The notes under the pieces: model-generated
What the model saw: only the letters and a program-made list of their open reading frames with translations
Told to the model about the DNA's origin: nothing
Databases searched by the model: none
Part shown: in pieces, positions 33,226-64,000 of the stretch
Layout: the number at the start of each line of letters is the position of its first letter
Position numbering within the stretch: position 1 is the first letter of the stretch
Assembly (NCBI GenBank): GCA_003117195.1
Contig: BDSI01000089.1
Location: forward strand, 466,142 to 530,141
Origin: Eudorina sp. 2006-703-Eu-15
Lineage: Eukaryota > Chlorophyta > Chlorophyceae > Chlamydomonadales > Volvocaceae
Direction: 5' to 3'
DNA: 64,000 nucleotides
Made by a program: the position numbers and the translations under genes

Positions 33226-33227
33226 GC

Positions 33228-35032: not shown

Positions 35033-35037
35033 TTACA
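35033..35037 (-). terminator. Possible TGTAA polyadenylation signal of the matrix-protein gene
   Basis: TGTAA on the minus strand, 255 nt beyond the stop codon at 35292. Confidence 0.5.
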
Positions 35038-35291: not shown

Positions 35292-38200
35292 CTACAGCCA
35301 CAACCAGCTGTGATCCGTTCGTGCCAGCACAGACCCGCCGGGCGCCGCCAGCGTCGCCGCCACCACTGGGACGCTGCCAGTACCGCTGCACTGCAGCACG
35401 ACCAGGTTGGGGCCGGGCCGCAGCGGGAACCTCAGCACTGTCAGCGCGGGGAAGCGCGCGGCCGTTCGGCCCGCCACTCGTCCGTTCACGACCACCGCCG
35501 CCGCATCGTCCACCGCGAGGGTGAGTGTGGCATTGCCGGCGGCGGCCAGGGACGCCGGCACCAGGATGGCCTTGTAGAAGGCCGTGTTGGACCAGGCGGA
35601 GGCGATGACGGGGTTGCCGCCCAGCGCGAAGGCGGTGGGGCGGGAGGCGAGCCAGCGGGCTGCGGGGTCGGCGGGCAGGCTGCCGTCCCCGGGGAAATCT
35701 GGGTGACGAATGTAGGTGCTGACACCTGCAAGACAAGACAGCACACACCCACACACGCACACACACGCGTTCCCGGGTCCGACATGCGCCGGGTTGCGCA
35801 TCCGTCATGAGGGTGGGTGGGGCGTTCAGAGGTCAAGACGGGGGGGGCGGTCCAGTACATGGATGGACGGGCAACGCATGCATGTGCTCAGTCGAGGGGC
35901 TCATTCATGACCGGGTGCATGGCAGGTGCGGGCAGGAGCGCAGGGCAGGGGATGGGGGTGTGAGGGGGGAGGGCTTCGCGATATCACGGATCGATGTGGG
36001 ACGGGGCGGGATGGGTGCGGTCGGTGGGTATCCGCGTCAAGCTGCGAGTCGGCACAGATATCGCTGCAGCTAGATGTATCTAGAACTATCTGCGGCCCCC
36101 CGCGCTTCCCGGTGCTAGACCTGTAGCAGTGAGCAGGCTGGCCGCCGCGGGCTGGCCGCCGCGAGTGCTCGTTCGGTCCTGTAGCGTTGCAGGCTGGCCG
36201 CCTCCGTGTCATCCCGTGTTGCGTCCGGACTTACCGTTACGGGAGCCAAGGGTTCTGTCGTCGTCCTGAAGCAGGAGGAGGCCGCTGGGGGAGGCGGATG
36301 ATGAAACCAGCGACCCGGTGGAGGTGGTGGGTGCGTCCCTCCGCAGGCGGCAGGTGCCGGTGCGGCGCGCGAAGTCCCAGTGCACGCAAGCGGCGGCGGA
36401 GAAGCAGGCCTGGCAGCACACGGCCTCGTTGACGGTGGTGATGGTGGAAAGTACGGCAGGCTCGTTGCTGAATCCGATGCCGTACTGCATCAGTGAGCAG
36501 TCTGCAGGCAGAGGCGAGGCGGCGTGCGGGTGGGGGCGTCCGGAGAGGCGAAGGGTTTGTTGGGGGCCTGCGGGGCTAGGTACCCGACGTGCGTGACGGT
36601 GGGAAATGGCACGGCCATACTAAGGGCAACAAGGGTTGAGGGAGCCCGGCCAATAGGCTTTTGGAAGTGCATGGGCACTGGCGAGGCCGGGAACATCTGC
36701 TAAAACGACAAGGAAGCGGGCAAACAAAGGCGACCATAAACGTGCAGTCGCCAAGCAGCCACACCACTAGGATGGGTATGTACCTAGCCCATAACTCTAC
36801 ATACCTGACCTTGCCGTGCGTCATGAGTACGGCAGACAGTACGTCAACAGTACGGCAAAGTGCAACCTGCCGTGCACGCACCTGGTGACGGCTCCGCCTC
36901 CAGGGTGGTCCCACTCGCGGCGCTGCTCCACCCCTGCCACAGGCTCGACGTGCCCCAGTTTGGCTGCGTGTACGTCGTCCGTACCATGCCCGCAGGGATG
37001 CCGTACACCTGCAGCTCCGAGACCTGCAGCGGGTCGGCCCCGAAGCTCTGCACACTGACGTAACGGCCCACTACGGGGCTGCTGCTCAGGTCAATCGTCA
37101 GAATTTCACCCGTGAAACCGGGGGCGTCTGTGGTGTACACCAGCTCGTTCAGGGTGATCTGGTCTTCGGTCAGTTTATTACTCACGAGAGCGCCCCCGAC
37201 ACGGAACTCCGTGCCGGGGGCGCGGTCACCGCAGCAGTCGCGCCGGTTGTAGAACACGATGCGGACGACGGCAAAGAGGCTGCCCAAGTCGATCGACAGC
37301 CAAGGGGCGACATCGCGCGGGTCGTTGCTGAAGAAGAAACCTTTCGCATCGCGGGAGGTGCTGGCCGGCGGGGTTACTGCGTCGTCGGTCGCAAGCTGAG
37401 GTCCGAACGCCTGAAACTCGGTACCAAGTACAGATGAGGCAAATGTCAACTTGCCGACTGAGACCGGGGTAGATGAAGGTGGAGGGCGAGGAGGGGCCCG
37501 CAGGCCAGAGCTAGGAGGTGGCAAGGGAGGCAGGGGCGGGGGCGGTGGCGGTGATGGAGATGGCGGACTAGGCGGCAGTGGAGACGGGGGCGGCGGGCTG
37601 GGGGCTGGTGACGGAGGTGCAGGGCTGGGCGGCGGCATGGGTGGTGGCGGCAGCGGGGGCGGTGAGGGCGGTGCAGGGCTGGGCGGAGGTGAGGGCGGAG
37701 CGGGGCTAGGTGGAGGAGATGGAGGTGCAGGGCTGGGAGGCGGCGATGGAGGCGGGGGGCTGGGAGGCGGAGACGGCGGCTGGGGACTGGGCGGAGGTGA
37801 CGGAGACGCAGGGCTGGGTGGCGGAGAAGGCTGTGGTGGTGGGCTCGGAGGTGGCGGGCCGGGCGGGCCTGGCGACGGCGGCACAGGGCTCGGCGGCGGC
37901 GATGGTGGAGACGGGCTGGGTGGGGGCAAGGGTGGAGTCGGGCTCGGCGGTGGAGGCGGCGACGGAGGATGAGGGCTGGGAGGCGGGGAAGGTGGCTGGG
38001 GCTGGGAGGCGGTGCTGGCAGGATGGGGCTGGGAGGTGGCAAGGGAGGCAGGGGCCGGGGCGGTGGCGGTGACGGAGGTGGCGGACTAGGCGGCAGGGGA
38101 GACGGGGGCGGCGGGCTGGGGGCTGGTGACGGAGGTGCAGGGCTGGGCGGCGGCATGGGTGGTGGCGGCAGCGGGGGCGGTGAGGGCGGTGCAGGGCTGG

Positions 38201-41200
38201 GCGGAGGTGAGGGCGGAGCGGGGCTAGGTGGAGGAGATGGAGGTGCAGGGCTGGGAGGCGGCGATGGAGGCGGGGGCTGGGAGGCGGAGACGGCGGCTGG
38301 GGACTGGGCGGAGGTGACGGAGGCGCAGGGCTGGGTGGCGGAGAAGGCTGTGGTGGTGGGCTCGGAGGTGGCGGGCCGGGCGGGCCTGGCGACGGCGGCA
38401 CAGGGCTCGGCGGCGGCGATGGTGGAGACGGGCTGGGTGGGGGCAAGGGTGGAGTCGGGCTCGGCGGTGGAGGCGGCGACGGAGGATGAGGGCTGGGAGG
38501 CGGGGAAGGTGGCTGGGGCTGGGAGGCGGTGCTGGCGGATGGGGCTGGGAGGTGGCAAGGGAGGCAGGGGCCGGGGCGGTGGCGGTGACGGAGGTGGCGG
38601 ACTAGGCGGCAGGGGAGACGGGGGCGGCGGGCTGGGGGCTGGTGACGGAGGTGCAGGGCTGGGCGGCGGCATGGGTGGTGGCGGCAGCGGGGGCGGTGAG
38701 GGCGGTGCAGGGCTGGGCGGAGGTGAGGGCGGAGCGGGGCTAGGTGGAGGAGATGGAGGTGCAGGGCTGGGAGGCGGCGATGGAGGCGGGGGGCTGGGAG
38801 GCGGAGACGGCGGCTGGGGACTGGGCGGAGGTGACGGAGGCGCAGGGCTGGGTGGCGGAGAAAGCTGTGGTGGTGGGCTCGGAGGTGGCGGGCCGGGCGG
38901 GCCTGGCGACGGCGGCACAGGGCTCGGCGGCGGCGATGGTGGAGACGGGCTGGGTGGGGGCAAGGGTGGAGTCGGGCTCGGCGGTGGAGGCGGCGACGGA
39001 GGATGAGGGCTGGGAGGCGGGGAAGGTGGCTGGGGGCTGGGAGGCGGTGCTGGCGGGATGGGGCTGGGAGGTGGCAAGGGAGGCAGGGGCCGGGGCGGTG
39101 GCGGTGACGGAGATGGCGGACTAGGCGGCAGGGGAGACGGGGGCGGCGGGCTGGGCGCTGGTGACGGAGGTGCAGGGCTGGGCGGCGGCATGGGTGGTGG
39201 CGGCAGCGGGGGCGGTGAGGGCGGTGCAGGGCTGGGCGGAGGTGAGGGCGGAGCGGGGCTAGGTGGAGGAGATGGAGGTGCAGGGCTGGGAGGCGGCGAT
39301 GGAGGCGGGGGGCTGGGAGGCGGAGACGGCGGCTGGGGACTGGGCGGAGGTGACGGAGGCGCAGGGCTGGGTGGCGGAGAAGGCTGTGGTGGTGGGCTCG
39401 GAGGTGGCGGGCCGGGCGGCGGCGACGGCGGCACAGGGCTCGGCGGCGGCGATGGTGGAGACGGGCTGGGTGGGGGCAAGGGTGGAGTCGGGCTCGGCGG
39501 TGGAGGCGGCGACGGAGGATGAGGGCTGGGAGGCGGGGAAGGTGGCTGGGGGCTGGGAGGCGGTGCTGGCGGGATGGGGCTGGGAGGTGGCAAGGGAGGC
39601 AGGGGCCGGGGCGGTGGCGGTGACGGAGGTGGCGGACTAGGCGGCAGGGAGACGGGGGCGGCGGGCTGGGGGCTGGTGACGGAGGTGCAGGGCTGGGCGG
39701 CGGCATGGGTGGTGGCGGCAGCGGGGGCGGTAAGGGCGGTGCAGGGCTGGGCGGAGGTGAGGGCGGAGCGGGGCTAGGTGGAGGAGATGGAGGTGCAGGG
39801 CTGGGAGGCGGCGATGGAGGCGGGGGGCTGGGAGGCGGAGACGGCGGCTGGGGACTGGGCGGAGGTGACGGAGGCGCAGGGCTGGGTGGCGGAGAAGGCT
39901 GTGGTGGTGGGCTCGGAGGTGGCGGGCCGGGCGGCGGCGACGGCGGCACAGGGCTCGGCGGCGGCGATGGTGGAGACGGGCTGGGTGGGGGCAAGGGTGG
40001 AGTCGGGCTCGGCGGTGGAGGCGGCGACGGAGGATGAGGGCTGGGAGGCGGGAAGGTGGTTGGGGCTGGGAGGCGGTGCTGGCGGGATGGGGCTGGGAGG
40101 TGGCAAGGGAGGCAGGGGCCGGGGCGGTGGCGGTGACGGAGGTGGCGGACTAGGCGGCAGGGGAGACGGGGGCGGCGGGCTGGGGCTGGTGACGGAGGTG
40201 CAGGGCTGGGCGGCGGCATGGGTGGTGGCGGCAGCGGGGGCGGTAAGGGCGGTGCAGGGCTGGGCGGAGGTGAGGGCGGAGCGGGGCTAGGTGGAGGAGA
40301 TGGAGGTGCAGGGCTGGGAGGCGGCGATGGAGGCGGGGGGCTGGGAGGCGGAGACGGCGGCTGGGGACTGGGCGGAGGTGACGGAGGCGCAGGGCTGGGT
40401 GGCGGAGAAGGCTGTGGTGGTGGGCTCGGAGGTGGCGGGCCGGGCGGGCCTGGCGACGGCGGCACAGGGCTCGGCGGCGGCGATGGTGGAGACGGGCTGG
40501 GTGGGGGCAAGGGTGGAGTCGGGCTCGGCGGTGGAGGCGGCGACGGAGGATGAGGGCTGGGAGGCGGGGAAGGTGGTTGGGGGCTGGGAGGCGGTGCTGG
40601 CGGGATGGGGCTGGGAGGTGGCAAGGGAGGCAGGGGCCGGGGCGGTGGCGGTGACGGAGGTGGCGGACTAGGCGGCAGTGGAGACGGGGGCGGCGGGCTG
40701 GGGGCTGGTGACGGAGGTGCAGGGCTGGGCGGCGGCATGGGTGGTGGCGGCAGCGGGGGCGGTGAGGGCGGTGCAGGGCTGGGCGGAGGTGAGGGCGGAG
40801 CGGGGCTAGGTGGAGGAGATGGAGGTGCAGGGCTGGGAGGCGGCGATGGAGGCGGGGGGCTGGGAGGCGGAGACGGCGGCTGGGGACTGGGCGGAGGTGA
40901 CGGAGGCGCAGGGCTGGGTGGCGGAGAAGGCTGTGGTGGTGGGCTCGGAGGTGGCGGGCCGGGCGGCGGCGACGGCGGCACAGGGCTCGGCGGCGGCGAT
41001 GGTGGAGACGGGCTGGGTGGGGCAAGGGTGGAGTCGGGCTCGGCGGTGGAGGCGGCGACGGAGGATGAGGGCTGGGAGGCGGGGAAGGTGGCTGGGGGCT
41101 GGGAGGCGGTGCTGGCGGGATGGGGCTGGGAGGTGGCAAGGGAGGCAGGGGCCGGGGCGGTGGCGGTGACGGAGGTGGCGGACTAGGCGGCAGGGGAGAC

Positions 41201-44200
41201 GGGGGCGGCGGGCTGGGGGCTGGTGACGGAGGTGCAGGGCTGGGCGGCGGCATGGGTGGTGGCGGCAGCGGGGGCGGTGAGGGCGGTGCAGGGCTGGGCG
41301 GAGGTGAGGGCGGAGCGGGGCTAGGTGGAGGAGATGGAGGTGCAGGGCTGGGAGGCGGCGATGGAGGCGGGGGCTGGGAGGCGGAGACGGCGGCTGGGGA
41401 CTGGGCGGAGGTGACGGAGGCGCAGGGCTGGGTGGCGGAGAAGGCTGTGGTGGTGGGCTCGGAGGTGGCGGGCCGGGCGGCGGCGACGGCGGCACAGGGC
41501 TCGGCGGCGGCGATGGTGGAGACGGGCTGGGTGGGGGCAAGGGTGGAGTCGGGCTCGGCGGTGGAGGCGGCGACGGAGGATGAGGGCTGGGAGGCGGGGA
41601 AGGTGGCTGGGGGCTGGGAGGCGGTGCTGGCGGGATGGGGCTGGGAGGTGGCAAGGGAGGCAGGGGCCGGGGCGGTGGCGGTGACGGAGGTGGCGGACTA
41701 GGCGGCAGGGGAGACGGGGGCGGCGGGCTGGGGCTGGTGACGGAGGTGCAGGGCTGGGCGGCGGCATGGGTGGTGGCGGCAGCGGGGGCGGTGAGGGCGG
41801 TGCAGGGCTGGGCGGAGGTGAGGGCGGAGCGGGGCTAGGTGGAGGAGATGGAGGTGCAGGGCTGGGAGGCGGCGATGGAGGCGGGGGCTGGGAGGCGGAG
41901 ACGGCGGCTGGGGACTGGGCGGAGGTGACGGAGGCGCAGGGCTGGGTGGCGGAGAAGGCTGTGGTGGTGGGCTCGGAGGTGGCGGGCCGGGCGGCGGCGA
42001 CGGCGGCACAGGGCTCGGCGGCGGCGATGGTGGAGACGGGCTGGGTGGGGGCAAGGGTGGAGTCGGGCTCGGCGGTGGAGGCGGCGACGGAGGATGAGGG
42101 CTGGGAGGCGGGGAAGGTGGCTGGGGCTGGGAGGCGGTGCTGGCGGGATGGGGCTGGGAGGTGGCAAGGGAGGCAGGGGCCGGGGCGGTGGCGGTGACGG
42201 AGGTGGCGGACTAGGCGGCAGGGAGACGGGGGCGGCGGGCTGGGGGCTGGTGACGGAGGTGCAGGGCTGGGCGGCGGCATGGGTGGTGGCGGCAGCGGGG
42301 GCGGTGAGGGCGGTGCAGGGCTGGGCGGAGGTGAGGGCGGAGCGGGGCTAGGTGGAGGAGATGGAGGTGCAGGGCTGGGAGGCAGCGATGGAGGCGGGGG
42401 GCTGGGAGGCGGAGACGGCGGCTGGGGACTGGGCGGAGGTGACGGAGGCGCAGGGCTGGGTGGCGGAGAAGGCTGTGGTGGTGGGCTCGGAGGTGGCGGG
42501 CCGGGCGGCGGCGACGGCGGCACAGGGCTCGGCGGCGGCGATGGTGGAGACGGGCTGGGTGGGGGCAAGGGTGGAGTCGGGCTCGGCGGTGGAGGCGGCG
42601 ACGGAGGATGAGGGCTGGGAGGCGGGGAAGGTGGCTGGGGCTGGGAGGCGGTGCTGGCGGGATGGGGCTGGGAGGTGGCAAGGGAGGCAGGGGCCGGGGC
42701 GGTGGCGGTGACGGAGGTGGCGGACTAGGCGGCAGTGGAGACGGGGGCGGCGGGCTGGGGCTGGTGACGGAGGTGCAGGGCTGGGCGGCGGCATGGGTGG
42801 TGGCGGCAGCGGGGGCGGTGAGGGCGGTGCAGGGCTGGGCGAAGGTGAGGGCGGAGCGGGGCTAGGTGGAGGAGATGGAGGTGCAGGGCTGGGAGGCGGC
42901 GATGGAGGCGGGGGACTGGGAGGCGGAGACGGCGGCTGGGGACTGGGCGGAGGTGACGGAGGCGCAGGGCTGGGTGGCGGAGAAGGCTGTGGTGGTGGGC
43001 TCGGAGGTGGCGGGCCGGGCGGGCGGCGACGGCGGCACAGGGCTCGGCGGCGGCGATGGTGGAGACGGGCTGGGTGGGGGCAAGGGTGGAGTCGGGCTCG
43101 GTGGTGGAGGCGGCGACGGAGGATGAGGGCTGGGAGGCGGGGAAGGTGGCTGGGGGCTGGGAGGCGGTGCTGGCGGGATGGGGCTGGGAGGTGGCAAGGG
43201 AGGCAGGGGCCGGGGCGGTGGCGGTGACGGAGGTGGCGGACTAGGCGGCAGTGGAGACGGGGGCGGCGGGCTGGGGGCTGGTGACGGAGGTGCAGGGCTG
43301 GGCGGCGGCATGGGTGGTGGCGGCAGCGGGGGCGGTGAGGGCGGTGCAGGGCTGGGCGAAGGTGAGGGCGGAGCGGGGCTAGGTGGAGGAGATGGAGGTG
43401 CAGGGCTGGGAGGCGGCGATGGAGGCGGGGGGCTGGGAGGCGGAGACGGCGGCTGGGGACTGGGCGGAGGTGACGGAGGCGCAGGGCTGGGTGGCGGAGA
43501 AGGCTGTGGTGGTGGGCTCGGAGGTGGCGGGCCGGGCGGCGGCGACGGCGGCACAGGGCTCGGCGGCGGCGATGGTGGAGACGGGCTGGGTGGGGGCAAG
43601 GGTGGAGTCGGGCTCGGCGGTGGAGGCGGCGACGGAGGATGAGGGCTGGGAGGCGGGGAAGGGGCTGGGGGCTGGGAGGCGGTGCTGGCGGGATGGGGCT
43701 GGGAGGTGGCAAGGGAGGCAGGGGCCGGGGCGGTGGCGGTGACGGAGATGGCGGACTAGGCGGCAGTGGAGACGGGGGCGGCGGGCTGGGGGCTGGTGAC
43801 GGAGGTGCAGGGCTGGGCGGCGGCATGGGTGGTGGCGGCAGCGGGGGCGGTGAGGGCGGTGCAGGGCTGGGCGAAGGTGAGGGCGGAGCGGGGCTAGGTG
43901 GAGGAGATGGAGGTGCAGGGCTGGGAGGCGGCGATGGAGGCGGGGGCTGGGAGGCGGAGACGGCGGCTGGGGACTGGGCGGAGGTGACGGAGGCGCAGGG
44001 CTGGGTGGCGGAGAAGGCTGTGGTGGTGGGCTCGGAGGTGGCGGGCCGGGCGGCGGCGACGGCGGCACAGGGCTCGGCGGCGGCGATGGTGGAGACGGGC
44101 TGGGTGGGGGCAAGGGTGGAGTCGGGCTCGGCGGTGGAGGCGGCGACGGAGGATGAGGGCTGGGAGGCGGGAAGGTGGCTGGGGCTGGGAGGCGGTGATG

Positions 44201-47200
44201 GCGGATGGGGCTGGGAGGTGGCAAGGGAGGCAGGGGCCGGGGCGGTGGCGGTGACGGAGATGGCGGACTAGGCGGCAGTGGAGACGGGGGCGGCGGGCTG
44301 GGGGCTGGTGACGGAGGTGCAGGGCTGGGCGGCGGCATGGGTGGTGGCGGCAGCGGGGGCGGTGAGGGCGGTGCAGGGCTGGGCGAAGGTGAGGGCGGAG
44401 CGGGGCTAGGTGGAGGAGATGGAGGTGCAGGGCTGGGAGGCGGCGATGGAGGCGGGGGGCTGGGAGGCGGAGACGGCGGCTGGGGACTGGGCGGAGGTGA
44501 CGGAGGCGCAGGGCTGGATGGCGGAGAAGGCTGTGGTGGTGGGCTCGGAGGTGGCGGGCCGGCGGCGGCGACGGCGGCACAGGGCTCGGCGGCGGCGATG
44601 GTGGAGACGGGCTGGGTGGGGGCAAGGGTGGAGTCGGGCTCGGCGGTGGAGGCGGCGACGGAGGATGAGGGCTGGGAGCGGGGAAGGCGGCTGGGGGCTG
44701 GGAGGCGGTGATGGCGGGATGGGGCTGGGAGGTGGCAAGGGAGGCAGGGGCCGGGGCGGTGGCGGTGACGGAGATGGCGGACTAGGCGGCAGTGGAGACG
44801 GGGGCGGCGGGCTGGGGGCTGGTGACGGAGGTGCAGGGCTGGGCGGCGGCATGGGTGGTGGCGGCAGCGGGGGCGGTGAGGGCGGTGCAGGGCTGGGCGA
44901 AGGTGAGGGCGGAGCGGGGCTAGGTGGAGGAGATGGAGGTGCAGGGCTGGGAGGCGGCGATGGAGGCGGGGGCTGGGAGGCGGAGACGGCGGCTGGGGAC
45001 TGGGCGGAGGTGACGGAGGCGCAGGGCTGGATGGCGGAGAAGGCTGTGGTGGTGGGCTCGGAGGTGGCGGGCCGGGCGGCGGCGACGGCGGCACAGGGCT
45101 CGGCGGCGGCGATGGTGGAGACGGGCTGGGTGGGGGCAAGGGTGGAGTCGGGCTCGGCGGTGGAGGCGGCGACGGAGGATGAGGGCTGGGAGGCGGGGAA
45201 GGCGGCTGGGGGCTGGGAGGCGGAGATGGCGGGATGGGGCTGGGAGGTGGCAAGGGAGGCAGGGGCCGGGGCGGTGGCGGTGACGGAGATGGCGGACTAG
45301 GCGGCAGTGGAGACGGGGGCGGCGGGCTGGGGGCTGGTGACGGAGGTGCAGGGCTGGGCGGCGGCATGGGTGGTGGCGGCAGCGGGGGCGGTGAGGGCGG
45401 TGCAGGGCTGGGCGAAGGTGAGGGCGGAGCGGGGCTAGGTGGAGGAGATGGAGGTGCAGGGCTGGGAGGCGGCGATGGAGGCGGGGGCTGGGAGGCGGAG
45501 ACGGCGGCTGGGGACTGGGCGGAGGTGACGGAGGCGCAGGGCTGGATGGCGGAGAAGGCTGTGGTGGTGGGCTCGGAGGTGGCGGGCCGGGCGGCGGCGA
45601 CGGCGGCACAGGGCTCGGCGGCGGCGATGGTGGAGACGGGCTGGGTGGGGGCAAGGGTGGAGTCGGGCTCGGCGGTGGAGGCGGCGACGGAGGATGAGGG
45701 CTGGGAGACGGGGAGGGTGCTGGGGGCTGGGAGGCGGAGATGGCGGGATGGGGCTGGAGGTGGCAAGGGAGGCAGGGGCCGGGGCGGTGGCGGTGACGGA
45801 GATGGCGGACTAGGCGGCAGTGGAGACGGGGGCGGCGGGCTGGGGGCTGGTGACGGAGGTGCAGGGCTGGGCGGCGGCATGGTGGTGGCGGCAGCGGGGG
45901 CGGTGAGGGGGTGCAGGGCTGGGCGAAGGTGAGGGCGGCGCGGGGCTAGGTGAGGAGATGGAGGTGCAGGGCTGGGAGGCGGCGATGGAGGCGGGGGCTG
46001 GGAGGCGGAGACGGCGGCTGGGGACTGGGCGGAGGTGACGGAGGCGCAGGGCTGGATGGCGGAGAAGGCTGTGGTGGTGGGCTCGGAGGTGGCGGGCCGG
46101 GCGGCGGCGACGGCGGCACAGGGCTCGGCGGCGGCGATGGTGGAGACGGCTGGGTGGGGGCAAGGGTGGAGTCGGGCTCGGCGGTGGAGGCGGCGACGGA
46201 GGATGCGGGCTGGGAGGCGGGGAAGGCGGCTGGGGCTGGGCGGCGGAGATGGCGGAATGGGGCTGGGAGGTGGCAAGGGAGGCAGGGGCCGGGGCGGTGG
46301 CGGTGACGGAGATGGCGGACTAGGCGGCAGTGGAGACGGGGGCGGCGGGCTGGGGGCTGGTGACGGAGGTGCAGGGCTGGGCGGCGGCATAGGTGGTGGC
46401 GGCAGCGGGGGCGGTGAGGCGGTGCAGGGCTGGGCGAAGTGAGGGCGGCGCGGGGCTAGGTGGAGGAGATGGAGGTGCAGGGCTGGGAGGCGGCGATGGT
46501 GGTGTTGGGCTGGGAGGCGGAGACAGCGGCTGGGGACTGGCGGCGGTGACGGGGGCGCAGGGCTGGGTGGCGGAGAAGGCTGTGGTGGTGGGCTCGGAGG
46601 TGGCGGGCCGGGCGGCGGCGACGGCGGCACAGGGCTCGGCGGCGGCGATGGTGGAGACGGGCTGGGTGGGGGCAAGGGTGGAGTCGGGCTCGGCGGTGGA
46701 GGCGGCGACGGAGGCTGCGGCTGGGAGGCGGGGAAGGCGGCTGGGGCTGGGCGGTGGAGATGGCGGAATGGGGCTGGGAGGTGGCAAGGGAGGCAGGGGC
46801 CGGGGCGGTGGCGGTGACGGAGGTGGCGGACTAGGCGGCAGTGGAGACGGGGGCGGCGGCTGGGGGCGGGTGACGGAGGTGCAGGGCTGGGGGGGCATAG
46901 GTGGTGGCGGCAGCGGGGGCGGTGACGGAGGTGCAGGGCTGGGCGGAAGTGAGGGCGGCGCGGGGCTAGGTGGGGGAGATGGAGGTGCAGGGCTGGGAGG
47001 CGGAGATGGTGGTGTTGGGGCTGGGAGGCGGAGACGGCGGCTGGGGACTGGGCGGCGGTGACGGGGGCGCAGGGCTGGGTGGCGGAGAAGGCTGTGGTGG
47101 TGGGCTCGGAGGTGGCGGGCCTGGCGGCGGCGACGGCGGCACAGGGCTCGGCGGCGGCGATGGTGGAGACGGGCTGGGTGGGGGCAAGGGTGGAGTCGGG

Positions 47201-53200: not shown

Positions 53201-56200
53201 TGGGGCTGGGAGGTGGCAAGGGAGGCAGGGGCCGGGGCGGTGGCGGTGACGGAGGTGGCGGACTAGGCGGCGTGGAGACGGGGGCGGCGGGCTGGGGCCG
53301 GGTGACGGAGGTGCAGGGCTGGGCGGCGGCATAGGTGGTGGCGGCAGCGGGGGCGGTGAGGGCGGTGCAGGGCTGGGCGGAGGTGAGGGCGGCGCGGGCT
53401 AGGTGGGGGAGATGGAGGTGTGGGCTGGGAGGCGGAGACGGCTGCTGGGACTGGGCGGCGGTGACGGGGGCGCAGGGCTGGGTGGCGGAGAAGGCCGTGC
53501 GGTGGGCCGGGGGTGGCGGGCCGGGCGGCGGCGACGGCGGCACAGGCTCGGCGGCGGCGATGGTGGAGACGGGCTGGGTGGGGCAAGGGTGGAGTCGGCT
53601 CGGCGGTGGAGGCGGAGACGGAGGCTGCGGGCTGGGAGGCGGGGAAGGCGGCTGAGGGCTGGGCGGCGGAGATGGCGGAATGGGGCTGGGAGGTGGCAAG
53701 GGAGGCAGGGGCCGGGGCGGTGGCGGTGACGGAGGTGGCGGACTAGGCGGCAGTGGAGACGGGGGCGGCGGGCTGGGGCCGGGTGACGGAGGTGCAGGGC
53801 TGGGCGGCGGCATAGGTGGTGGCGGCAGCGGGGCGGTGAGGGCGGTGCAGGGCTGGGCGGAGGTGAGGGCGGCGCGGGGCTAGGTGGGGGAGATGGAGGT
53901 GCAGGGCTGGGAGGCGGAGACGGCTGCTGGGGACTGGGCGGCGGTGACGGGGGCGCAGGGCTGGGTGGCGGAGAAGGCCGTGGCGGTGGGTTCGGGGTGG
54001 CGGGCCGGGCGGCGGCGACGGCGGCACAGGGCTCGGAGGCGGCGATGGTGGAGACGGGCTGGGTGGGGGCAAGGGTGGAGTCGGCTCGGCGGTGGAGGCG
54101 GAGACGGAGGCTGCGGGCTGGGAGGCGGGGAAGGCGGCTGGGGCTGGGCGGCGGAGATGGCGGAATGGGGCTGGGAGGTGGCGGGGAGGCAGGGGCCGGG
54201 GCGGTGGCGGTGACGGAGGTGGCGGACTAGGCGGCAGTGGAGACGGGGGCGGCGGGCTGGGGCGGGTGACGGAGGTGCAGGGCTGGGCGGCGGCATAGGT
54301 GGTGGCGGCAGCGGGGGCGGTGAGGGCGGTGCAGGGCTGGGCGGAGGTGAGGGCGGCGCGGGCTAGGTGGGGAGATGGAGGTGCAGGGCTGGGAGGCGGA
54401 GACGGCGGCTGGGGACTGGGCGGCGGTGACGGGGGCGCAGGGCTGGGTGGCGGAGAAGGCCGTGGCGGTGGGCTCGGGGGTGGCGGGCCGGGCGGCGGCG
54501 ACGGCGGCACAGGGCTCGGCGGCGGCGATGGTGGAGACGGGCTGGGTGGGGGCAAGGGTGGAGTCGGGCTCGGCGGTGGAGGCGGCGACGGAGGCTGCGG
54601 GCTGGGAGGCGGGGAAGGCGGCTGAGGGCTGGGCGGCGGAGATGGCGGAATGGGGCTGGGAGGTGGCAAGGGAGGCAGGGGCCGGGGCGGTGGCGGTGAC
54701 GGAGGTGGCGGACTAGGCGGCAGTGGAGACGGGGGCGGCGGGCTGGGGCGGGTGACGGAGGTGCAGGGCTGGGCGGCGGCATAGGTGGTGGCGGCAGCGG
54801 GGGCGGTGAGGGCGGTGCAGGGCTGGGCGAGGTGAGGGCGGCGCGGGGCTAGGTGGGGGAGATGGAGGTGCAGGGCTGGGAGGCGGAGACGGCGGCTGGG
54901 ACTGGGCGGCGGTGACGGGGGCGCAGGGCTGGGTGGCGGAGAAGGCCGTGGCGGTGGGCTCGGGGTGGCGGGCCGGGCGGCGGCGACGGCGGCACAGGGC
55001 TCGGCGGCGGCGATGGTGGAGACGGGCTGGGTGGGGGCAAGGGTGGAGTCGGGCTCGGCGGTGGAGGCGGCGACGGAGGCTGCGGCTGGGAGGCGGGGAA
55101 GGCGGCTGAGGGCTGGGCGGCGGAGATGGCGGAATGGGGCTGGGAGGTGGCAAGGGAGGCAGGGGCCGGGCGGTGGCGGTGACGGAGGTGGCGGACTAGG
55201 CGGCAGTGGAGACGGGGGCGGCGCGGGCTGGCGGCGGGTGACGGAGGTGCAGGGCTGGGCGGCGGCATAGGTGGTGGCGGCAGCGGGGGCGTGAGGCGGT
55301 GCAGGCTGGGCGGAGGTGAGGGCGGCGCGGGCTAGGTGGGGGAGATGGAGGTGCAGGGCTGGGAGGCGGAGACGGCTGCTGGGGACTGGGCGGCGGTGAC
55401 GGGGGCGCAGGGCTGGGTGGCGGAGAAGGCCGTGGCGGTGGGCTCGGGGTGGCGGGCCGGGCGGCGGCGACGGCGGCACAGGGCTCGGCGGCGGCGATGG
55501 TGGAGACGGGCTGGGTGGGGCAAGGGTGGAGTCGGGCTCGGCGGTGGAGGCGGAGACGGAGGCTGCGGGCTGGGAGGCGGGGAAGGCGGCTGAGGGCTGG
55601 GCGGCGAGATGGCGGAATGGGGCTGGGAGGTGCAAGGGAGGCAGGGGCCGGGGCGGTGGCGGTGACGGAGGTGGCGACTAGGCGGCAGTGGAGACGGGGC
55701 GGCGGGCTGGCGGCGGGTGACGGAGGTGCAGGGCTGGGCGGCGGCATAGGTGGTGGCGGCAGCGGGGGCGGTGAGGGCGGTGCAGGGCTGGGCGGAGGTG
55801 AGGGCGGCGCGGGGCTAGGTGGGGGAGATGGAGGTGCAGGGCTGGGAGGGCGGAGACGGCTGCTGGGGACTGGGCGGCGGTGACGGGGGGCGCAGGGCTG
55901 GGTGGCGAGAAGGCCGTGGCGGTGGTTCCGGGGTGGCGGGCCGGGCGGCGGCGACGGCGGCACAGGGCTCGGCGGCGGCGATGGTGGAGACGGGCTGGGT
56001 GGGGGCAAGGGTGGAGTCGGGCTCGGCGGTGGAGGCGGAGACGGAGGCTGCGGGCTGGAGGCGGGGAAGGCGGCTGAGGGCTGGGCGGCGGAGATGGCGG
56101 AATGGGGCTGGGAGGTGCCAGGGAGGCAGGGGCCGGGGCGGTGGCGGTGACGGAGGTGGCGGACTAGGCGGCAGTGGAGACGGGGGCGGCGGCTGGCGGC

Positions 56201-59200
56201 GGGTGACGGAGGTGCAGGGCTGGGCGGCGGCATAGGTGGTGGCGGCAGCGGGGCGGTGAGGGCGGTGCAGGGCTGGGCGGAGGGTGAGGGCGGCGCGGGG
56301 CTAGGTGGGGGAGATGGAGGTGCAGGGCTGGGAGGCGGAGACGGCTGCTGGGGACTGGGCGGCGGTGACGGGGCGCAGGGCTGGGTGGCGGAGAAGGCCG
56401 TGGCGGTGGGTTCGGGGGTGGCGGCCGGGCGGCGGCGACGGCGGCACAGGGCTCGGCGGCGGCGAATGGTGGAGACGGGGCTGGGTGGGGGCAAGGGTGG
56501 AGTCGGGCTCGGCGGTGGAGGCGGAGACGGAGGCTGCGGGCTGGGAGGCGGGAAAGCGGCTGGGGGCTGGGCGGCGGAGATGGCGGAATGGGGCTGGGAG
56601 GTGGCAAGGGAGGCAGGGGCCGGGGCGGTGGCGGTGACGGAGGTGGCGGACTAGCGCAGTGGAGACGGGGGCGGCGGGCTGGCGGCGGGTGACGGAGGTG
56701 CAGGGCTGGGCGGCGGCATAGGTGGTGGCGGCAGCGGGGCGGTGAGGGCGGTGCAGGGCTGGGCGGAGGTGAGGGCGGCGCGGGGGCTAGGTGGGGAGAT
56801 GGAGGTGCAGGGCTGGGAGGCGGAGACGGCTGCTGGGGACTGGGCGGCGGTGACGGGGGGCGCAGGGCTGGGTGGCGGAGAAGGCCGTGGCGGTGGCTCG
56901 GGGGTGGCGGGCCGGGCGGCGGCGACGGCGGCACAGGGCTCGGCGGCGGGCGATGGTGGAGACGGGGCTGGGTGGGGGCAAGGGTGGAGTCGGGCTCGGC
57001 GTGGAGGCGGAGACGGAGGCTGCGGGCTGGGAGGCGGGAAGGCGGCTGGGGGCTGGCGGTCGGAGATGGCGGAATGGGCTGGGAGGTGGCCAGGGGAGGC
57101 AGGGGCCGGGGCGGTGGCGGTGACGGAGGTGGCGGACTAGGCGGCAGTGGAGACGGGGGCGGCGGGCTGGGGCGGGTGACGGAGGTGCAGGGCTGGGCGG
57201 CGGCATAGGTGGTGCGGCAGCGGGGGCGTGAGGGCGGTGCAGGGCTGGGCGAGGTGAGGGCGGCGCGGGGCTAGGTGGGGAGATGGAGGTGCAGGGCTGG
57301 GAGGCGGAGACGGCGCTGGGGACTGGCGGCGGTGACGGGGCGCAGGGCTGGGTGGCGGAGAAGGCCGTGGCGGTGGGCTCGGGGTGGCGGGCCGGGGCGG
57401 CGCGACGGGCGGCACAGGGCTCGCGGCGGCGATGGTGGAGACGGGCTGGGTGGGGCAAGGGTGGAGTCGGGCTCGGCGGTGGAGGCGGAGACGGAGGCTG
57501 CGGGCTGGGAGGCGGGGAAGGCGGCTGGGGCTGGGCGGCGGAGATGGCGGAATGGGGCTGGGAGGTGGCCGGGGAGGCAGGGGCCGGGGCGGTGGCGGTG
57601 ACGGAGGTGGCGGACTAGGCGGCAGTGGAGACGGGGGCGGCGGGCTGGGGCGGGTGACGGAGGTGCAGGGCTGGGCGGCGGCATAGGTGGTGGCGGCAGC
57701 GGGGGCGGTGAGGGCGGTGCAGGGCTGGGCGGAGGTGAGGGCGGCGCGGGGCTAGGTGGGGGAGATGGAGGTGCAGGGCTGGGAGGCGGAGACGGCGCTG
57801 GGGACTGGGCGGCGGTGACGGGGGCGCAGGGCTGGGTGGCGGAGAAGGCCGTGGCGGTGGGCTCGGGGGTGGCGGGCCGGGCGGCGGCGACGGCGGCACA
57901 GGGCTCGGCGGCGGCGATGGTGGAGACGGGCTGGGTGGGGCAAGGGTGGAGTCGGGCTCGGCGGTGGAGGCGGAGACGGAGGCTGCGGGCTGGGAGGCGG
58001 GAAGGCGGCTGAGGGCTGGGCGGCGGAGATGGCGGAATGGGGCTGGGAGGTGGCAAGGGAGGCAGGGGCCGGGGCGGTGGCGGTGACGGAGGTGGCGGAC
58101 TAGGCGGCAGTGGAGACGGGGGCGGCGGGCTGGGGCGGGTGACGGAGGTGCAGGGCTGGGCGGCGGCATAGGTGGTGGCGGCAGCGGGGGCGGTGAGGGC
58201 GGTGCAGGGCTGGGCGGAGGTGAGGGCGGCGCGGGCTAGGTGGGGGAGATGGAGGTGCAGGGCTGGGAGGCGGAGACGGCGGCTGGGGACTGGGCGGCGG
58301 TGACGGGGGCGCAGGGCTGGGTGGCGGAGAAGGCCGTGGCGGTGGGCTCGGGGTGGCGGGCCGGGCGGCGGCGACGGCGGCACAGGGCTCGGCGGCGGCG
58401 ATGGTGGAGACGGGCTGGGTGGGGGCAAGGGTGGAGTCGGGCTCGGCGGTGGAGGCGGAGACGGAGGCTGCGGCTGGGAGGCGGGGAAGGCGGCTGAGGG
58501 CTGGGCGGCGAGATGGCGGAATGGGGCTGGGAGGTGGCAAGGGAGGCAGGGGCCGGGGCGGTGGCGGTGACGGAGGTGGCGGACTAGGCGGCAGTGGAGA
58601 CGGGGCGGCGGGCTGGGGCGGTGACGGAGGTGCAGGGCTGGGCGGCGGCATAGGTGGTGGCGGCAGCGGGGGCGGTGAGGGCGGTGCAGGGCTGGGCGGA
58701 GGTGAGGGCGGCGCGGGCTAGGTGGGGGAGATGGAGGTGCAGGGCTGGGAGGCGGAGACGGCTGCTGGGGACTGGGCGGCGGTGACGGGGGCGCAGGGCT
58801 GGGTGGCGGAGAAGGCCGTGGCGGTGGGCTCGGGGTGGCGGGCCGGGCGGCGGCGACGGCGGCACAGGGCTCGGCGGCGGCGATGGTGGAGACGGGCTGG
58901 GTGGGGGCAAGGGTGGAGTCGGGCTCGGCGGTGGAGGCGGAGAGACGGAGGCTGCGGGCTGGGAGGCGGGGAAGGCGGCTGGGGCTGGGCGGCGAGATGG
59001 CGGAATGGGGCTGGGAGGTGGCAAGGGAGGCAGGGGCCGGGCGGTGGCGGTGACGGAGGTGGCGGACTAGGCGGCAGTGGAGACGGGGGCGGCGGGCTGG
59101 GGCGGTGACGGAGGTGCAGGGCTGGGCGGCGGCATAGGTGGTGGCGGCAGCGGGGGCGGTGAGGGCGGTGCAGGGCTGGGCGGAGGTGAGGGCGGCGCGG

Positions 59201-62200
59201 GGCTAGGTGGGGGAGATGGAGGTGCAGGGCTGGGAGGCGGAGACGGCGCTGGGGACTGGGCGGCGGTGACGGGGGCGCAGGGCTGGGTGGCGGAGAAGGC
59301 CGTGGCGGTGGGCTCGGGGGTGGCGGGCCGGGCGGCGGCGACGGCGGCACAGGGCTCGGCGGCGGCGATGGTGGAGACGGGCTGGGTGGGGGCAAGGGTG
59401 GAGTCGGGCTCGGCGGTGGAGGCGAGACGGAGGCTGCGGGCTGGGAGGCGGGGAAGGCGGCTGGGGCTGGGCGGCGGAGATGGCGGAATGGGGCTGGGAG
59501 GTGGCAAGGGAGGCAGGGGCCGGGGCGGTGGCGGTGACGGAGGTGGCGGACTAGGCGGCAGTGGAGACGGGGCGGCGGGCTGGGGCGGGGTGACGGAGGT
59601 GCAGGGCTGGGCGGCGGCATAGGTGGTGGCGGCAGCGGGGGCGGTGAGGGCGGTGCAGGGCTGGGCGGAGGTGAGGGCGGCGCGGGGCTAGGTGGGGGAG
59701 ATGGAGGTGCAGGGCTGGGAGGCGGAGACGGCTGCTGGGGACTGGGCGGCGGTGACGGGGGCGCAGGGCTGGGTGGCGGAGAAGGCCGTGGCGGTGGGCT
59801 CGGGGTGGCGGGCCGGGCGGCGGCGACGGCGGCACAGGGCTCGGCGGCGGCGATGGTGGAGACGGGCTGGGTGGGGGCAAGGGTGGAGTCGGGCTCGGCG
59901 GTGGAGGCGGCGACGGAGGCTGCGGGCTGGGAGGCGGGGAAGGCGGCTGGGGCTGGGCGGCGGAGATGGCGGAATGGGGCTGGGAGGTGGCAAGGGAGGC
60001 AGGGGCCGGGGCGGTGGCGGTGACGGAGGTGGCGGACTAGGCGGCAGTGGGAGACGGGGGCGGCGGGCTGGGCGGGTGACGGAGGTGCAGGGCTGGGCGG
60101 CGGCATAGGTGGTGGCGGCAGCGGGGGCGGTGAGGGCGGTGCAGGGCTGGGCGGAGGTGAGGGCGGCGCGGGCTAGGTGGGGAGATGGAGGTGCAGGGCT
60201 GGGAGGCGGAGACGGCTGCTGGGGACTGGGCGGCGGTGACGGGGCGCAGGGCTGGGTGGCGGAGAAGGCCGTGGCGGTGGGCTCGGGGGTGGCGGGCCGG
60301 GCGCGGCGACGGCGGCACAGGGCTCGGCGGCGGCGATGGTGGAGACGGGCTGGGTGGGGCAAGGGTGGAGTCGGGCTCGGCGGTGGAGGCGGGACGGAGG
60401 CTGCGGGCTGGAGGCGGGGAAGGCGGCTGGGGCTGGGCGGGAGATGGCGGAATGGGGCTGGGAGGTGGCAAGGGAGGCAGGGCCGGGGCGGTGGCGGTGA
60501 CGGAGGTGGCGGACTAGGCGGCAGTGGAGACGGGGGCGGCGGGCTGGGGGCGGGTGACGGAGGTGCAGGGCTGGGCGGCGGCATAGGTGGTGGCGGCAGC
60601 GGGGGCGGTGAGGGCGGTGCAGGGCTGGGCGAGGTGAGGGCGGCGCGGGGCTAGGTGGGGGAGATGGAGGTGCAGGGCTGGGAGGCGGAGACGGCGCTGG
60701 GGACTGGGCGGCGGTGACGGGGCGCAGGGCTGGGTGGCGGAGAAGGCCGTGGCGGTGGGCTCGGGGTGGCGGGCCGGGCGGCGGCGACGGCGGCACAGGG
60801 CTCGGCGGCGGCGATGGTGGAGACGGGCTGGGTGGGGGCAAGGGTGGAGTCGGCTCGGCGGTGGAGGCGGCGACGGAGGCTGCGGGCTGGGAGGCGGGAA
60901 AGAAGGCCGTGGCGGTGGCTCGGGGGGCGGGCCGGGCGGCGGCGACGGCGGCACAGGGCTCGGCGGCGGCGATGGTGGAGACGGGCTGGGTGGGGCAAGG
61001 GTGGAGTCGGGCTCGGCGGTGGAGGCGGAGACGGAGGCTGCGGGCTGGAGGCGGGAAAGGCGGCTGAGGGCTGGGCGGCGAGATGGCGGAATGGGGCTGG
61101 GAGGTGGCAAGGGAGGCAGGGGCCGGGGCGGTGGCGGTGACGGAGGTGGCGGACTAGGCGGCAGTGGAGACGGGGGGCGGGCTGGGGCGGTGACGGAGGT
61201 GCAGGGCTGGGCGGCGGCATAGGTGGTGGCGGCAGCGGGGGCGGTGAGGGCGGTGCAGGGCTGGGCGGAGGTGAGGGCGGCGCGGGGGCTAGGTGGGGAG
61301 ATGGAGGTGCAGGGCTGGGAGGCGGAGACGGCGGCTGGGGACTGGGCGGCGGTGACGGGGCGCAGGGCTGGGTGGCGGAGAAGGCCGTGGCGGTGGGGGG
61401 GGTGGCGGGCCGGGCGGCGGCGACGGCGGCACAGGGCTCGGCGGCGGCGATGGTGGAGACGGGCTGGGTGGGGGCAAGGGTGGAGTCGGGCTCGGCGGTG
61501 GAGGCGGAGACGGAGGCTGCGGGCTGGGAGGCGGGGAAGGCGGCTGGGGCTGGGCGGCGGAGATGGCGGAATGGGGCTGGGAGGTGGCAAGGGAGGCAGG
61601 GGCCGGGGCGGTGGCGGTGACGGAGGTGGCGGACTAGGCGGCAGTGGAGACGGGGGCGGCGGGCTGGGGCGGTGACGGAGGTGCAGGGCTGGGCGGCGGC
61701 ATAGGTGGTGGCGGCAGCGGGGGCGGTGAGGGCGGTGCAGGGCTGGGCGGAGGTGAGGGCGGCGCGGGGCTAGGTGGGGAGATGGAGGTGCAGGGCTGGG
61801 AGGCGGAGACGGCGGCTGGGGACTGGGCGGCGGTGACGGGGGCGCAGGGCTGGGTGGCGGAGAAGGCCGTGGCGGTGGGCTCGGGGTGGCGGGCCGGGCG
61901 GCGGCGACGGCGGCACAGGGCTCGGCGGCGGCGATGGTGGAGACGGGCTGGGTGGGGCAAGGGTGGAGTCGGGCTCGCGGTGGAGGCGGAGACGGAGGCT
62001 GCGGGCTGGGAGGCGGGGAAGGCGGCTGGGGCTGGGCGGCGGAGATGGCGGAATGGGGCTGGGAGGTGGCAAGGGAGGCAGGGGCCGGGGCGGTGGCGGT
62101 GACGGAGGTGGCGGACTAGGCGGCAGTGGAGACGGGGGCGGGCTGGCGGCGGGTGACGGAGGTGCAGGGCTGGGCGGCGGCATAGGTGGTGGCGGCAGCG

Positions 62201-64000
62201 GGGGCGGTGAGGGCGGTGCAGGGCTGGGCGGAGGTGAGGGCGGCGCGGGGCTAGGTGGGGAGATGGAGGTGCAGGGCTGGGAGGCGGAGACGGCTGCTGG
62301 GGACTGGGCGGCGGTGACGGGGCGCAGGGCTGGGTGGCGGAGAAGGCCGTGGCGGTGGCTCGGGGGTGGCGGGCCGGGCGGCGGCGACGGCGGCACAGGG
62401 CTCGGCGGCGGCGATGGTGGAGACGGGCTGGGTGGGGGCAAAGGGTGGAGTCGGGCTCGGCGGTGGAGGCGGAGACGGAGGCTGCGGGCTGGGAGGCGGG
62501 AAGCGGCTGGGGGCTGGGCGGCGGAGATGGCGGAATGGGGCTGGGAGGTGGCAAGGGAGGCAGGGGCCGGGGCGGTGGCGGTGACGGAGGTGGGGACTAG
62601 GCGGCAGTGGAGACGGGGGCGGCGGCTGGCGGCGGTGACGGAGGTGCAGGGCTGGGCGGCGGCATAGGTGGTGGCGGCAGCGGGGGCGGTGAGGGCGGTG
62701 CAGGGCTGGGCGGAGGTGAGGGCGGCGCGGGGCTAGGTGGGGGAGATGGAGGTGCAGGGCTGGGAGGCGGAGACGGCTGCTGGGGACTGGGCGGCGGTGA
62801 CGGGGCGCAGGGCTGGGTGGCGGAGAAGGCCGTGCGGTGGGTTCGGGTGGCGGGCCGGGCGGCGGCGACGGCGGCACAGGGCTCGGCGGCGGCGATGGTG
62901 GAGACGGGCTGGGGGCAAGGGTGGAGTCGGGCTCGGCGTGGGAGGCGGAGACGGAGGCTGCGGGGCTGGGAGGCGGGGAAGCGGCTGGGGCTGGGCGGCG
63001 GAGATGGCGGAATGGGGCTGGGAGGTGGCAAGGGAGGCAGGGGCCGGGGCGGTGGCGGTGACGGAGGTGGCGGACTAGGCGGCAGTGGAGACGGGGGGCG
63101 GGCTGGGGCGGGTGACGGTGCAGGGCTGGGCGGCGGCATAGGTGGTGGCGGCAGCGGGGCGGTGAGGGCGGTGCAGGGCTGGGCGGAGGTGAGGGCGGCG
63201 GCGGGCTAGGTGGGGGAGATGGAGGTGCAGGCTGGGAGGCGGAGACGGCTGCTGGGGACTGGGCGGCGGTGACGGGGCGCAGGGCTGGGTGGGGAGAAGG
63301 CCGTGGCGGTGGTCGGGGTGGCGGGCCGGGCGGCGGCGACGGCGGCACAGGGCTCGGCGGCGGCGATGGTGGAGACGGGCTGGGTGGGGGCAAGGGTGGA
63401 GTCGGCTCGGCGGTGAGGGAGACGGAGGCTGCGGGCTGGGAGGCGGGGAAGGCGGCTGGGGCTGGGCGGCAAGATGGCGGAATGGGGCTGGGAGGGCAAG
63501 GGAGGCAGGGGCCGGGGCGGTGGCGGTGACGGAGGTGGCGGACTAGGCGGCAGTGGAGACGGGGGCGGCGGCTGGGCGGGTGACGGAGTGCAGGGCTGGG
63601 CGGCGGCAGGGTGGTGGCGGCAGCGGGCGGTGAGGGCGGTGCAGGGCTGGGCGGAGGTGGAGGGCGGCGCGGGGCTAGGTGGGGAGATGGAGTGCAGGGC
63701 TGGGAGGCGGAGACGGCGGCTGGGGACTGGCGGCGGTGACGGGGGCGCAGGGCTGGGTGGCGGAGAAGGCCGTGGCGGTGGGCTCGGGGGGTGGCGGGGC
63801 CGGGCGGCGGCGACGGCGGCACAGGCTCGGCGGCGGCGATGGTGGAGACGGGCTGGGTGGGGGCAAGGGTGGAGTCGGGCTCGGCGGTGGAGGCGGCGAC
63901 GGGGCTGCGGGCTGGGAGGCGGGGAAGCGGCTGGGGCTGGGCGCGGAGATGGCGAATGGGGCTGGGAGGTGGCAAGGGAGGCAGGGGCCGGGGCGGTGGC
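35292..64000 (-). CDS. Giant hydroxyproline-rich extracellular matrix protein with F5/8 type C domain (3' part)
   Basis: Predicted secreted wall/matrix glycoprotein; the start lies off the right edge. The C-terminal exons are firm: 36882 upward through the discoidin domain into the shaft, 36501-36235, and 35725-35292 (stop TAG), joined in phase. The shaft has units of [20 protein letters not shown] type, the usual substrate of prolyl hydroxylation and arabinosylation in volvocine walls. Next is an F5/8 type C (discoidin, Gal-binding fold) domain: ANSVLG-like [52 protein letters not shown]. Exon 36501-36235 encodes a Cys-rich module ([27 protein letters not shown]) resembling PAN/apple-like folds. 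The last 144 residues ([37 protein letters not shown]) form a beta-rich module I do not name. The frame is open from the stop up to about 38085, where a one-base G-run difference (37998-38001) breaks it; beyond that the array carries many such breaks, so continuity over 38-64 kb is not shown. Confidence 0.82.
37515..64000. repeat. Megasatellite encoding the Pro/Ser-rich shaft (at least 53 units)
   Basis: I followed the marker GCGGCAT(G/A)GGTGGTGGCGG through the array: 37636, 38154, 38670, 39189, 39704, 40217 and so on to about 63604, 53 occurrences. Spacing is 508-519 bp up to 49461 and 474-488 bp afterwards, with one 626-bp exception at 60592-61218. The plus strand is strongly G-rich. Units before 46.4 kb read CATGGG at the marker, later ones CATAGG. 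The shorter class lacks about 30 bp (GGCGATGGAGGC...GGGAG) between the GGAGGTGCAGGGCTGGGAGG and GAGACGG blocks. The array continues past the right edge. Confidence 0.97.

What the first reader, a model, noticed from the sequence alone, without database searches (positions are those of the whole stretch)
35292..64000. Enormous Pro/Ser-rich shaft fused to a discoidin domain
At least 53 units of roughly 160-172 codons would make a shaft of over 8,500 residues within this window alone, capped by an F5/8 type C domain, a Cys-rich module and an unnamed beta-rich end. Pherophorin-type and other volvocine wall proteins usually have much shorter Hyp-rich rods. An F5/8 domain could bind glycans at the tip of a rod longer than a micrometre if extended. 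The domain calls are from motifs seen; the rod length and role are inference.
Basis: partly seen in the sequence, partly recalled or inferred. Interest (0 to 1): 0.75.

Follow-up and report, generated by a model that had tools for sequence, protein, structure and literature searches.

The report
Giant multi-headed algal matrix protein gene
The window holds the tail end of a gene in a colonial green alga that seems to encode one of the largest proteins known, sugar-binding-type heads strung along very long proline-rich rods and probably a cable of the extracellular matrix, although the DNA assembly is too error-prone there to fix its length.

Summary
On the minus strand, 52 complete Pro/Ser units (23 of about 516 bp, 29 of about 486 bp) run from 37.6 kb to the window end, which is the contig end. 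They lead into F5/8, PAN and lectin-like exons with GT-AG introns and a stop. The 516-bp consensus is one open frame; the assembled array is broken by 1-base indels, mostly deletions, which look like long-read error. Substitutions between units favour synonymous sites and make no stops.

The "cap" is only one end. Contig C27 begins in the same 486-bp units, then has seven near-identical F5/8-PAN-beta triplets joined by rods, and a likely signal-peptide exon. A paralogue (C4) and a Pleodorina protein show the basic plan: triplet, rod, triplet. C27 has the internal F5/8 type, the window the terminal type.

Best reading: C27 plus C89 are one gene of roughly 17,000-21,000 codons or more, encoding a secreted beads-on-cable matrix glycoprotein. 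Length is unresolved: contig C2580 shows the same tail with only about 16 units before an internal triplet, and three more contigs are unplaced. Expression was not testable.

The parts
35292..35725 (-). last exon: terminal lectin-like beta domain, ends RTDHSWLWL and stop (stop codon 35292-35294)
   Evidence: translation of joined exons; no Pfam hit; model pTM 0.63, mean pLDDT 64.5, nearest PDB folds Pleurotus lectin and PA14; homologues in Volvox and Pleodorina
35033..35037 (-). TGTAA, the volvocine polyadenylation signal (recalled), 254 nt after the stop
   Evidence: 0.43 expected in 400 nt of shuffles, so weak
35726..36234 (-). intron, 509 bp, GT-AG, phase 1
36235..36501 (-). PAN (apple-type) exon, 267 bp
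   Evidence: PF00024 25.4 bits over cut-off 21.4
36502..36881 (-). intron, 380 bp, GT-AG, phase 1
36988..37461 (-). terminal-type F5/8 (discoidin-like) domain; same exon as the rod (exon runs on down to 36882)
   Evidence: PF22633 over cut-off; outside the internal clade in a tree of 15 domains
37607..49431 (-). rod, 23 units of about 516 bp (172 codons, 69% Pro, 18% Ser); units away from the F5/8 exon gradually take on marks of the second unit type
49432..64000 (-). rod, 29 complete units of about 486 bp and a partial one, to the contig end; same unit length class at the left end of C27 and in C491

Best explanation
The window carries the 3' part of a single very large gene for a secreted Pro/Ser-rich (presumably hydroxyproline-rich) matrix glycoprotein of a colonial volvocine alga, probably Eudorina. 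Its 5' part lies at the left end of contig C27. The protein starts with a likely signal peptide, then has seven near-identical globular triplets (F5/8 - PAN - lectin-like beta domain) separated by Pro/Ser rods of about 250 to 2,300 residues, then a rod of probably more than 10,000 residues, then a different terminal triplet at the C-terminus (this window). It derives from a dumbbell plan (internal triplet - rod - terminal triplet) by amplification of the internal module and tandem growth of the rod. Proposed mechanism: the rods are hydroxylated and O-glycosylated into stiff polyproline-II cables, and the triplets act as repeated glycan- or protein-binding heads that cross-link the matrix along a contour of several micrometres. 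Shown here: domain and exon architecture, a coding-type substitution pattern, the family plan, the unit type shared by the contig ends. Inferred: contiguity of C27 and C89, total length, translation, signal peptide function, hydroxylation, glycan binding, matrix role.
For: Clean spliced C-terminal reading to a stop. Consensus 516-bp unit open in one frame. Among 48 units of C89, C27 and C349, 71 distinct substitutions: codon positions 1/2/3 = 14/16/41; of 70 that could be translated 39 synonymous, 31 not, 0 stops, against 31% synonymous expected. C89 1-base indels: 47 of 54 are deletions and 33 of the 47 lie in runs of 3 or more, which make up 27% of the unit. C27: 486-type units at its left end, seven triplets with introns of 316-317 and 254 bp, read-through from beta domain into rod, two exons that hold beta domain, rod and F5/8 in one open frame of 934 and 590 codons, leader exon in phase with the first F5/8 exon. 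C491: 24.8 kb with hits to the unit motif from its start to 18 kb and rod in the 5.8 kb read, no F5/8 or beta match listed. Internal and terminal F5/8 types separate with support 0.997; C27 has the internal type and the window the terminal one. C4 relative with leader, both triplets and rod; Pleodorina P0007 with two triplets and an eight-proline linker.
Against: No frame stays open through the array as assembled; units with length divisible by three are 9 of 21 in C89, 9 of 17 in C27, 5 of 10 in C349, and four of the six C27 exons between triplets are broken. C2580, the same tail with 0 substitutions, passes from about 16 units straight into an internal triplet. C349, and in match tables C783 and C1137, hold further rods and internal triplets that the model does not place. 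No read, clone or transcript joins C27 and C89. The substitution test treats related units as independent. No expression data.
Confidence: 0.55

Rival explanations
1. The array length is partly an assembly product: the real terminal rod is much shorter (about 16 units, some 2,700 residues) and joins an internal triplet directly, as contig C2580 shows. The protein would still be multi-headed and long, but the 8,850-residue rod would not exist.
For: C2580 overlaps the tail with 0 substitutions and 15 gaps in 1,433 columns and reaches an internal triplet after about 16 units. The likely source assembly used 20-kb libraries and HGAP3 (PMC6123790, passages), so few reads could span 26 kb.
Against: C89 units change stepwise from one type to the other, unlike an abrupt mis-join; 486-type units recur at the C27 end and in C491, so a long 486-type array exists somewhere. 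C2580 is very noisy (20.8 indels per kb) and may be a chimera.
Confidence: 0.3
2. C89 and C27 belong to different genes: the window's gene has its own 5' end with its own internal triplet, and C27 is the 5' part of a sister gene that shares recently homogenised units.
For: C349, C783, C1137 and C2580 hold further internal triplets and rods, so there is more of this material than C27 plus C89 need; the family is large and partly clustered.
Against: The exact terminal beta exon has one place in the assembly, and the 486-bp unit class was seen only at the C89 end, the C27 end and in C491 (C783 and C1137 were seen only as match tables).
Confidence: 0.2
3. The array is a decayed or non-coding minisatellite grown from a coding exon; the functional protein, if any, is short.
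For: Frame breaks throughout; a V. carteri gene model joins internal PAN-beta to terminal F5/8-beta without a rod (P0003).
Against: Excess of synonymous changes and no stops among 70 substitutions; two intact beta-rod-F5/8 exons in C27; indels of the kind seen in C2580, which is the same DNA.
Confidence: 0.1
4. It is a gamete adhesion protein of the sexual-agglutinin kind rather than a matrix cable.
For: Rod-plus-head plan with lectin-type heads; agglutinin SAD1 has a repetitive shaft and a head domain (PMC3757049, passages).
Against: Heads at both ends and along the chain, in a large gene family; agglutinin sequences were not at hand (paper not held), so homology was not tested.
Confidence: 0.1

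Closest known systems
Pherophorins (Volvox, Chlamydomonas)
   Same: Dumbbell plan of two globular parts and a Pro-rich rod of variable length in a volvocine matrix family (PMC9818292, passages)
   Different: Heads are F5/8-PAN-beta, no pherophorin family in the Pfam scans; rod thousands of residues against means of 89 and 181; extra internal heads in C27
F5/8-PAN-beta proteins of Volvox and Pleodorina (Vafri_18815, VOLCADRAFT_92832 and 99427, PLESTB_001769500, PLESTM_001568000)
   Same: Same domains in the same order; PLESTM_001568000 has two full triplets
   Different: Eight-proline linker in PLESTM_001568000; no giant rod or repeated internal triplets in the records found (length-limited searches, partial gene models)
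Mastigoneme proteins MST1/MST3
   Same: Long glycosylated PPII helices, e.g. a 429-residue helix, filaments with mean length 146 nm (PMC11015965, passages)
   Different: Other globular domains; rods about twenty times shorter than the rod assembled here
Chlamydomonas sexual agglutinins SAG1/SAD1
   Same: Repetitive shaft and a head (PMC3757049, passages)
   Different: Sequence not compared here; size and single head recalled
F-type lectins
   Same: F5/8-like jelly-roll; such domains are reported in Volvox (PMC5712786, passages); one V. carteri relative is named fucolectin-like by a source
   Different: Binding motif of F-type lectins not tested; no rods in that account as far as the passages showed

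Membership tests
F5/8 type C (discoidin-like) domain proteins | Profile match over the curated cut-off | tested here: met
   PF22633 29.3 bits against 27.8 for the exon alone; PF00754 24.4 against 28.2 is below, and with more rod attached PF22633 falls to 27.5, so marginal; relatives pass both (P0002, P0003; P0007)
PAN/apple domain proteins | Profile match over the curated cut-off | tested here: met
   PF00024 25.4 bits against 21.4
Pherophorins | Pherophorin globular domains | tested here: not met
   No pherophorin family at E up to 1 in the three terminal exons nor up to 10 in P0007 and the F5/8 exon
Pherophorins | Two globular parts joined by a Pro-rich rod | tested here: met
   C4 relative and P0007; works like, is not a member
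Volvocine hydroxyproline-rich glycoproteins | Pro-rich SPn-type repeats on a secreted chain | tested here: met
   Rod 69% Pro, 18% Ser, 31 SP pairs in 172 residues; leader exon by eye only, no signal-peptide program was run
Volvocine hydroxyproline-rich glycoproteins | Hydroxylated and glycosylated prolines | not testable with these tools
   Needs protein chemistry
Sexual agglutinins | Homology of the head domain | not tested
   Sequences not at hand; PMC548829 not held

The most novel reading that the evidence does not exclude
One gene spanning C27, C491 and C89 encodes a polypeptide of 20,000-30,000 residues, in the size class of titin: a single secreted molecule some 5-8 micrometres long with eight or more lectin-type triplet heads, grown from a dumbbell plan by module amplification, acting as a cross-linked cable or length ruler of the colonial matrix.
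Probability: 0.42. Interest if true: 0.85.

Novelty: new variant of a known kind. Interest (0 to 1): 0.66.

Why it matters
If true, a colonial alga makes one of the largest proteins known as matrix material, long enough to span much of the colony's matrix by itself. A family of F5/8-PAN-beta dumbbells whose rods range from eight prolines (Pleodorina) to thousands of residues allows a direct test of whether rod length sets matrix thickness or spacing in multicellular volvocines. It also shows how such a gene can be split over contigs and frame-broken in a long-read assembly, so that gene catalogues may miss it. Searches of the held library for volvocine + hydroxyproline-rich + discoidin (0 papers), volvocine + PAN domain (0 papers), Volvox + discoidin (5 papers, by listing not about such proteins except the F-type lectin review) and Chlamydomonas + giant/longest protein (2 unrelated papers by listing) showed no description of it; most subscription journals are not held.

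Tried and rejected
Rejected: that the repeat period itself breaks the frame (suspected from TRF's periods 485 and 482). The 516-bp consensus is in frame. For the 486-type the majority consensus is 486 long but still reads through in no single frame, as if carrying frame-shifting deletions, so its true length is not settled. Rejected: C2580 as a paralogue (0 substitutions). Rejected: pherophorin membership. Rejected: the triplet as a mere tip.

Led nowhere: PDB sequence search with the beta domain (best E 0.35). Protein searches listed no Chlamydomonas relative, but they are word-based and length-limited, so this absence is weak; one weak non-algal hit was a bacterial discoidin protein. Sexual-agglutinin comparison. 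The indel-versus-position test (C89 rho -0.69, p 1e-7, more indels toward the contig end; C27 rho 0.40, p 0.13) is not used as proof because the 486-type reference is itself noisy. In one search the first of seven F5/8 starts was missed, so the rod pairs it printed are shifted; I re-paired the printed coordinates by hand.

Rows dropped or not seen: one search's substitution test used units of 495-525 bp only (21 of C89, 17 of C27, 10 of C349; 9 of C2580 for indels). The tree has 15 F5/8 domains, while one search listed 92 matches; the place of the window's domain beside C4's terminal one has support 0.158 only. C349 was read at 8,400-22,600 in full plus loci up to 29.5 kb not analysed further; C491 at 19,001-24,770; C783 and C1137 only as match tables. 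Searches list 100 of 108 and 100 of 107 hits.
Full report
Setting. The window is contig C89:466,142-530,141 of an unnamed 181.2-Mb genome with 3,033 contigs, and the contig ends at the window's last base. The size is near that of the Eudorina sp. female assembly (184,032,255 bp, 3,180 contigs, PacBio HGAP3 with Illumina correction; PMC6123790, passages seen) but not equal to it, and the relatives found are Volvox and Pleodorina. Eudorina is therefore probable, by inference only.

The tail of the gene. On the minus strand the exon that carries the rod ends with an F5/8 domain, followed by a PAN exon of 267 bp and a last exon that ends RTDHSWLWL and a stop. The introns are 380 and 509 bp, GT-AG, phase 1, and the joined reading has no internal stop. 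Pfam calls F5/8 (PF22633 above cut-off, PF00754 below) and PAN_1 (above cut-off), and nothing for the last domain. The model of the last domain has pTM 0.63 and mean pLDDT 64.5, so it is only moderately reliable; its best PDB neighbours are a Pleurotus lectin (E 2.9e-4, TM 0.50) and a PA14 sugar-binding domain (E 4.2e-4). The three domains align to V. africanus Vafri_18815 (46% identity, whole query) and to parts of V. carteri and P. starrii proteins.

The array. Units are of two kinds: 23 of about 516 bp nearest the F5/8 exon, then 29 of about 486 bp (counted from the intervals). The 516-bp consensus is open in one frame and reads 69% Pro and 18% Ser. Units 1-10 are nearly alike, and units 11-22 take on the marks of the second kind step by step. 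As assembled, the frame is broken often: 37, 42 and 42 stops in the three minus-strand frames.

Why I read the breaks mainly as errors. In 21 C89 units, 47 of 54 single-base indels are deletions, and 33 of these 47 lie in runs of three or more, which make up 27% of the unit; in 17 C27 units the figures are 41 of 48 and 22 of 41. C2580 repeats the window's tail with 0 substitutions and 15 gaps in 1,433 columns and has 20.8 indels against 1.3 substitutions per kb in its units: the same DNA with raw-read noise. In C27, two of the six exons between triplets are intact, with open frames of 934 and 590 codons that hold a beta domain, the rod and the next F5/8 domain together; the other four are broken. 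Substitutions between units look coding: 41 of 71 at codon position 3, 39 synonymous and 31 non-synonymous, none to stop. Units are related and built of sub-repeats, so the p-value of 2e-5 overstates the independence of the changes.

The other half. A search with a 486-type stretch gave C27, C349, C783, C1137 and C2580 (15 of 570 candidates scored). C27 is a 1.2-Mb contig. Its first 11.7 kb are rod, with 486-type units at the very left end. Then come seven triplets of F5/8, PAN and beta, with introns of 316-317 and 254 bp and F5/8 domains 98-100% alike. In the two C27 triplets that I translated, the beta domain runs on without a stop, as DHTWLWAAETTPPPPPNPP. From coordinates the six rods between them are about 255, 599, 1,143, 426, 2,309 and 254 residues, and the one at the contig end at least 3,957. 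Upstream of the first triplet a leader exon (C27:40,562-40,934) ends in a hydrophobic stretch and joins in phase 1. A 25-base motif of the 486-type units, which C27's inner units also carry, gives 108 hits; the 100 listed lie in C27, C89 and C491. C491 is 24,770 bases; hits listed run from its start to 18 kb, the 5,770 bases that I read are rod, and no F5/8 or beta match is listed for it.

The family plan. At C4:1,064-1,073 kb a relative reads leader (by eye), F5/8, PAN, beta, rod, F5/8, PAN, beta, stop, with at least one frame change inside the rod. P. starrii P0007 has two triplets joined by eight prolines. In a tree of 15 F5/8 domains the seven of C27 and the first of the C4 gene group with support 0.997; the window's domain lies outside, 62-64% identical to C4's second one and three of C40, 32-36% to the internal ones. 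So C27 supplies what the window lacks (leader, internal triplets) and the window what C27 lacks in the part read (terminal triplet, stop). With the unit type shared by both contig ends, this is the case for one gene.

Size. If C89 and C27 simply abut, the coding length is about 9,272 + 11,714 codons, together 20,987. If their 486-type arrays overlap fully it is about 17,000; with C491 between and no overlap, about 29,000 (my arithmetic). The rod in the window alone is about 8,850 residues, 2.7 micrometres as a PPII helix (3.1 A per residue, PMC11015965, passages). The same paper shows glycosylated PPII filaments with a mean length of 146 nm for a 429-residue helix. Titin's size, about 35,000 residues, is recalled.

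What does not fit. C2580 goes from the window's tail through about 16 units into an internal triplet, which differs by 18-22 mismatches per about 1,225 bases from each of the five C27 triplets compared. C349 (31.8 kb) is rod and internal triplets where read, with rod lengths not seen in C27; C783 and C1137 look alike in the match tables. These may be further modules, a second allele or copy, or chimeras. The exact terminal beta exon has one place in the assembly, which speaks against a second full gene. I leave this open.

Function. A likely leader, Pro-rich rods and lectin-type domains argue for a secreted matrix protein; heads at both ends and along the chain argue for cross-linking. Pherophorins share the dumbbell idea but not the domains. 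Expression, hydroxylation and binding were not tested.

Noticed in passing
window 31996-33527: Two 300-bp stretches, 100% identical, at 31,996-32,295 and 33,228-33,527: looks like a young short element with long terminal repeats, about 1.8 kb beyond the gene's 3' end.
   Followed up: partly
window 33176-33225 and 33797-33846: A 50-bp perfect direct repeat, one copy just before the second 300-bp repeat.
   Followed up: no
G000 contigs C40 (477-533 kb), C4 (1,056-1,073 kb), C87, C123, C36, C60 and others: A large, partly clustered family of F5/8, PAN and beta exons (92 F5/8 and 38 beta matches), some beside open frames of 2,010 and 2,407 codons.
   Followed up: partly
L009/L010 (C2580): Small noisy contig that carries the window's tail unchanged in substitutions but with a shorter rod leading into an internal triplet: array length variant or chimera.
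   Followed up: partly
C27:11.9-38.6 kb: Seven triplets with F5/8 domains 98-100% alike and introns of 316-317 and 254 bp: recent amplification or strong gene conversion.
   Followed up: partly
L039 from about 6,190 to 7,000 (C27:43.2-44.0 kb): A non-coding-looking minisatellite (unit about CCTGCCCCCGCCTGGTCATGATTCCTAG) upstream of the leader exon.
   Followed up: no
C27, C89, C491, C349, C783, C1137, C2580: The array lies in the same orientation in every listed contig (108 and 107 forward hits, 0 reverse), which chance would seldom give for seven independent contigs.
   Followed up: no
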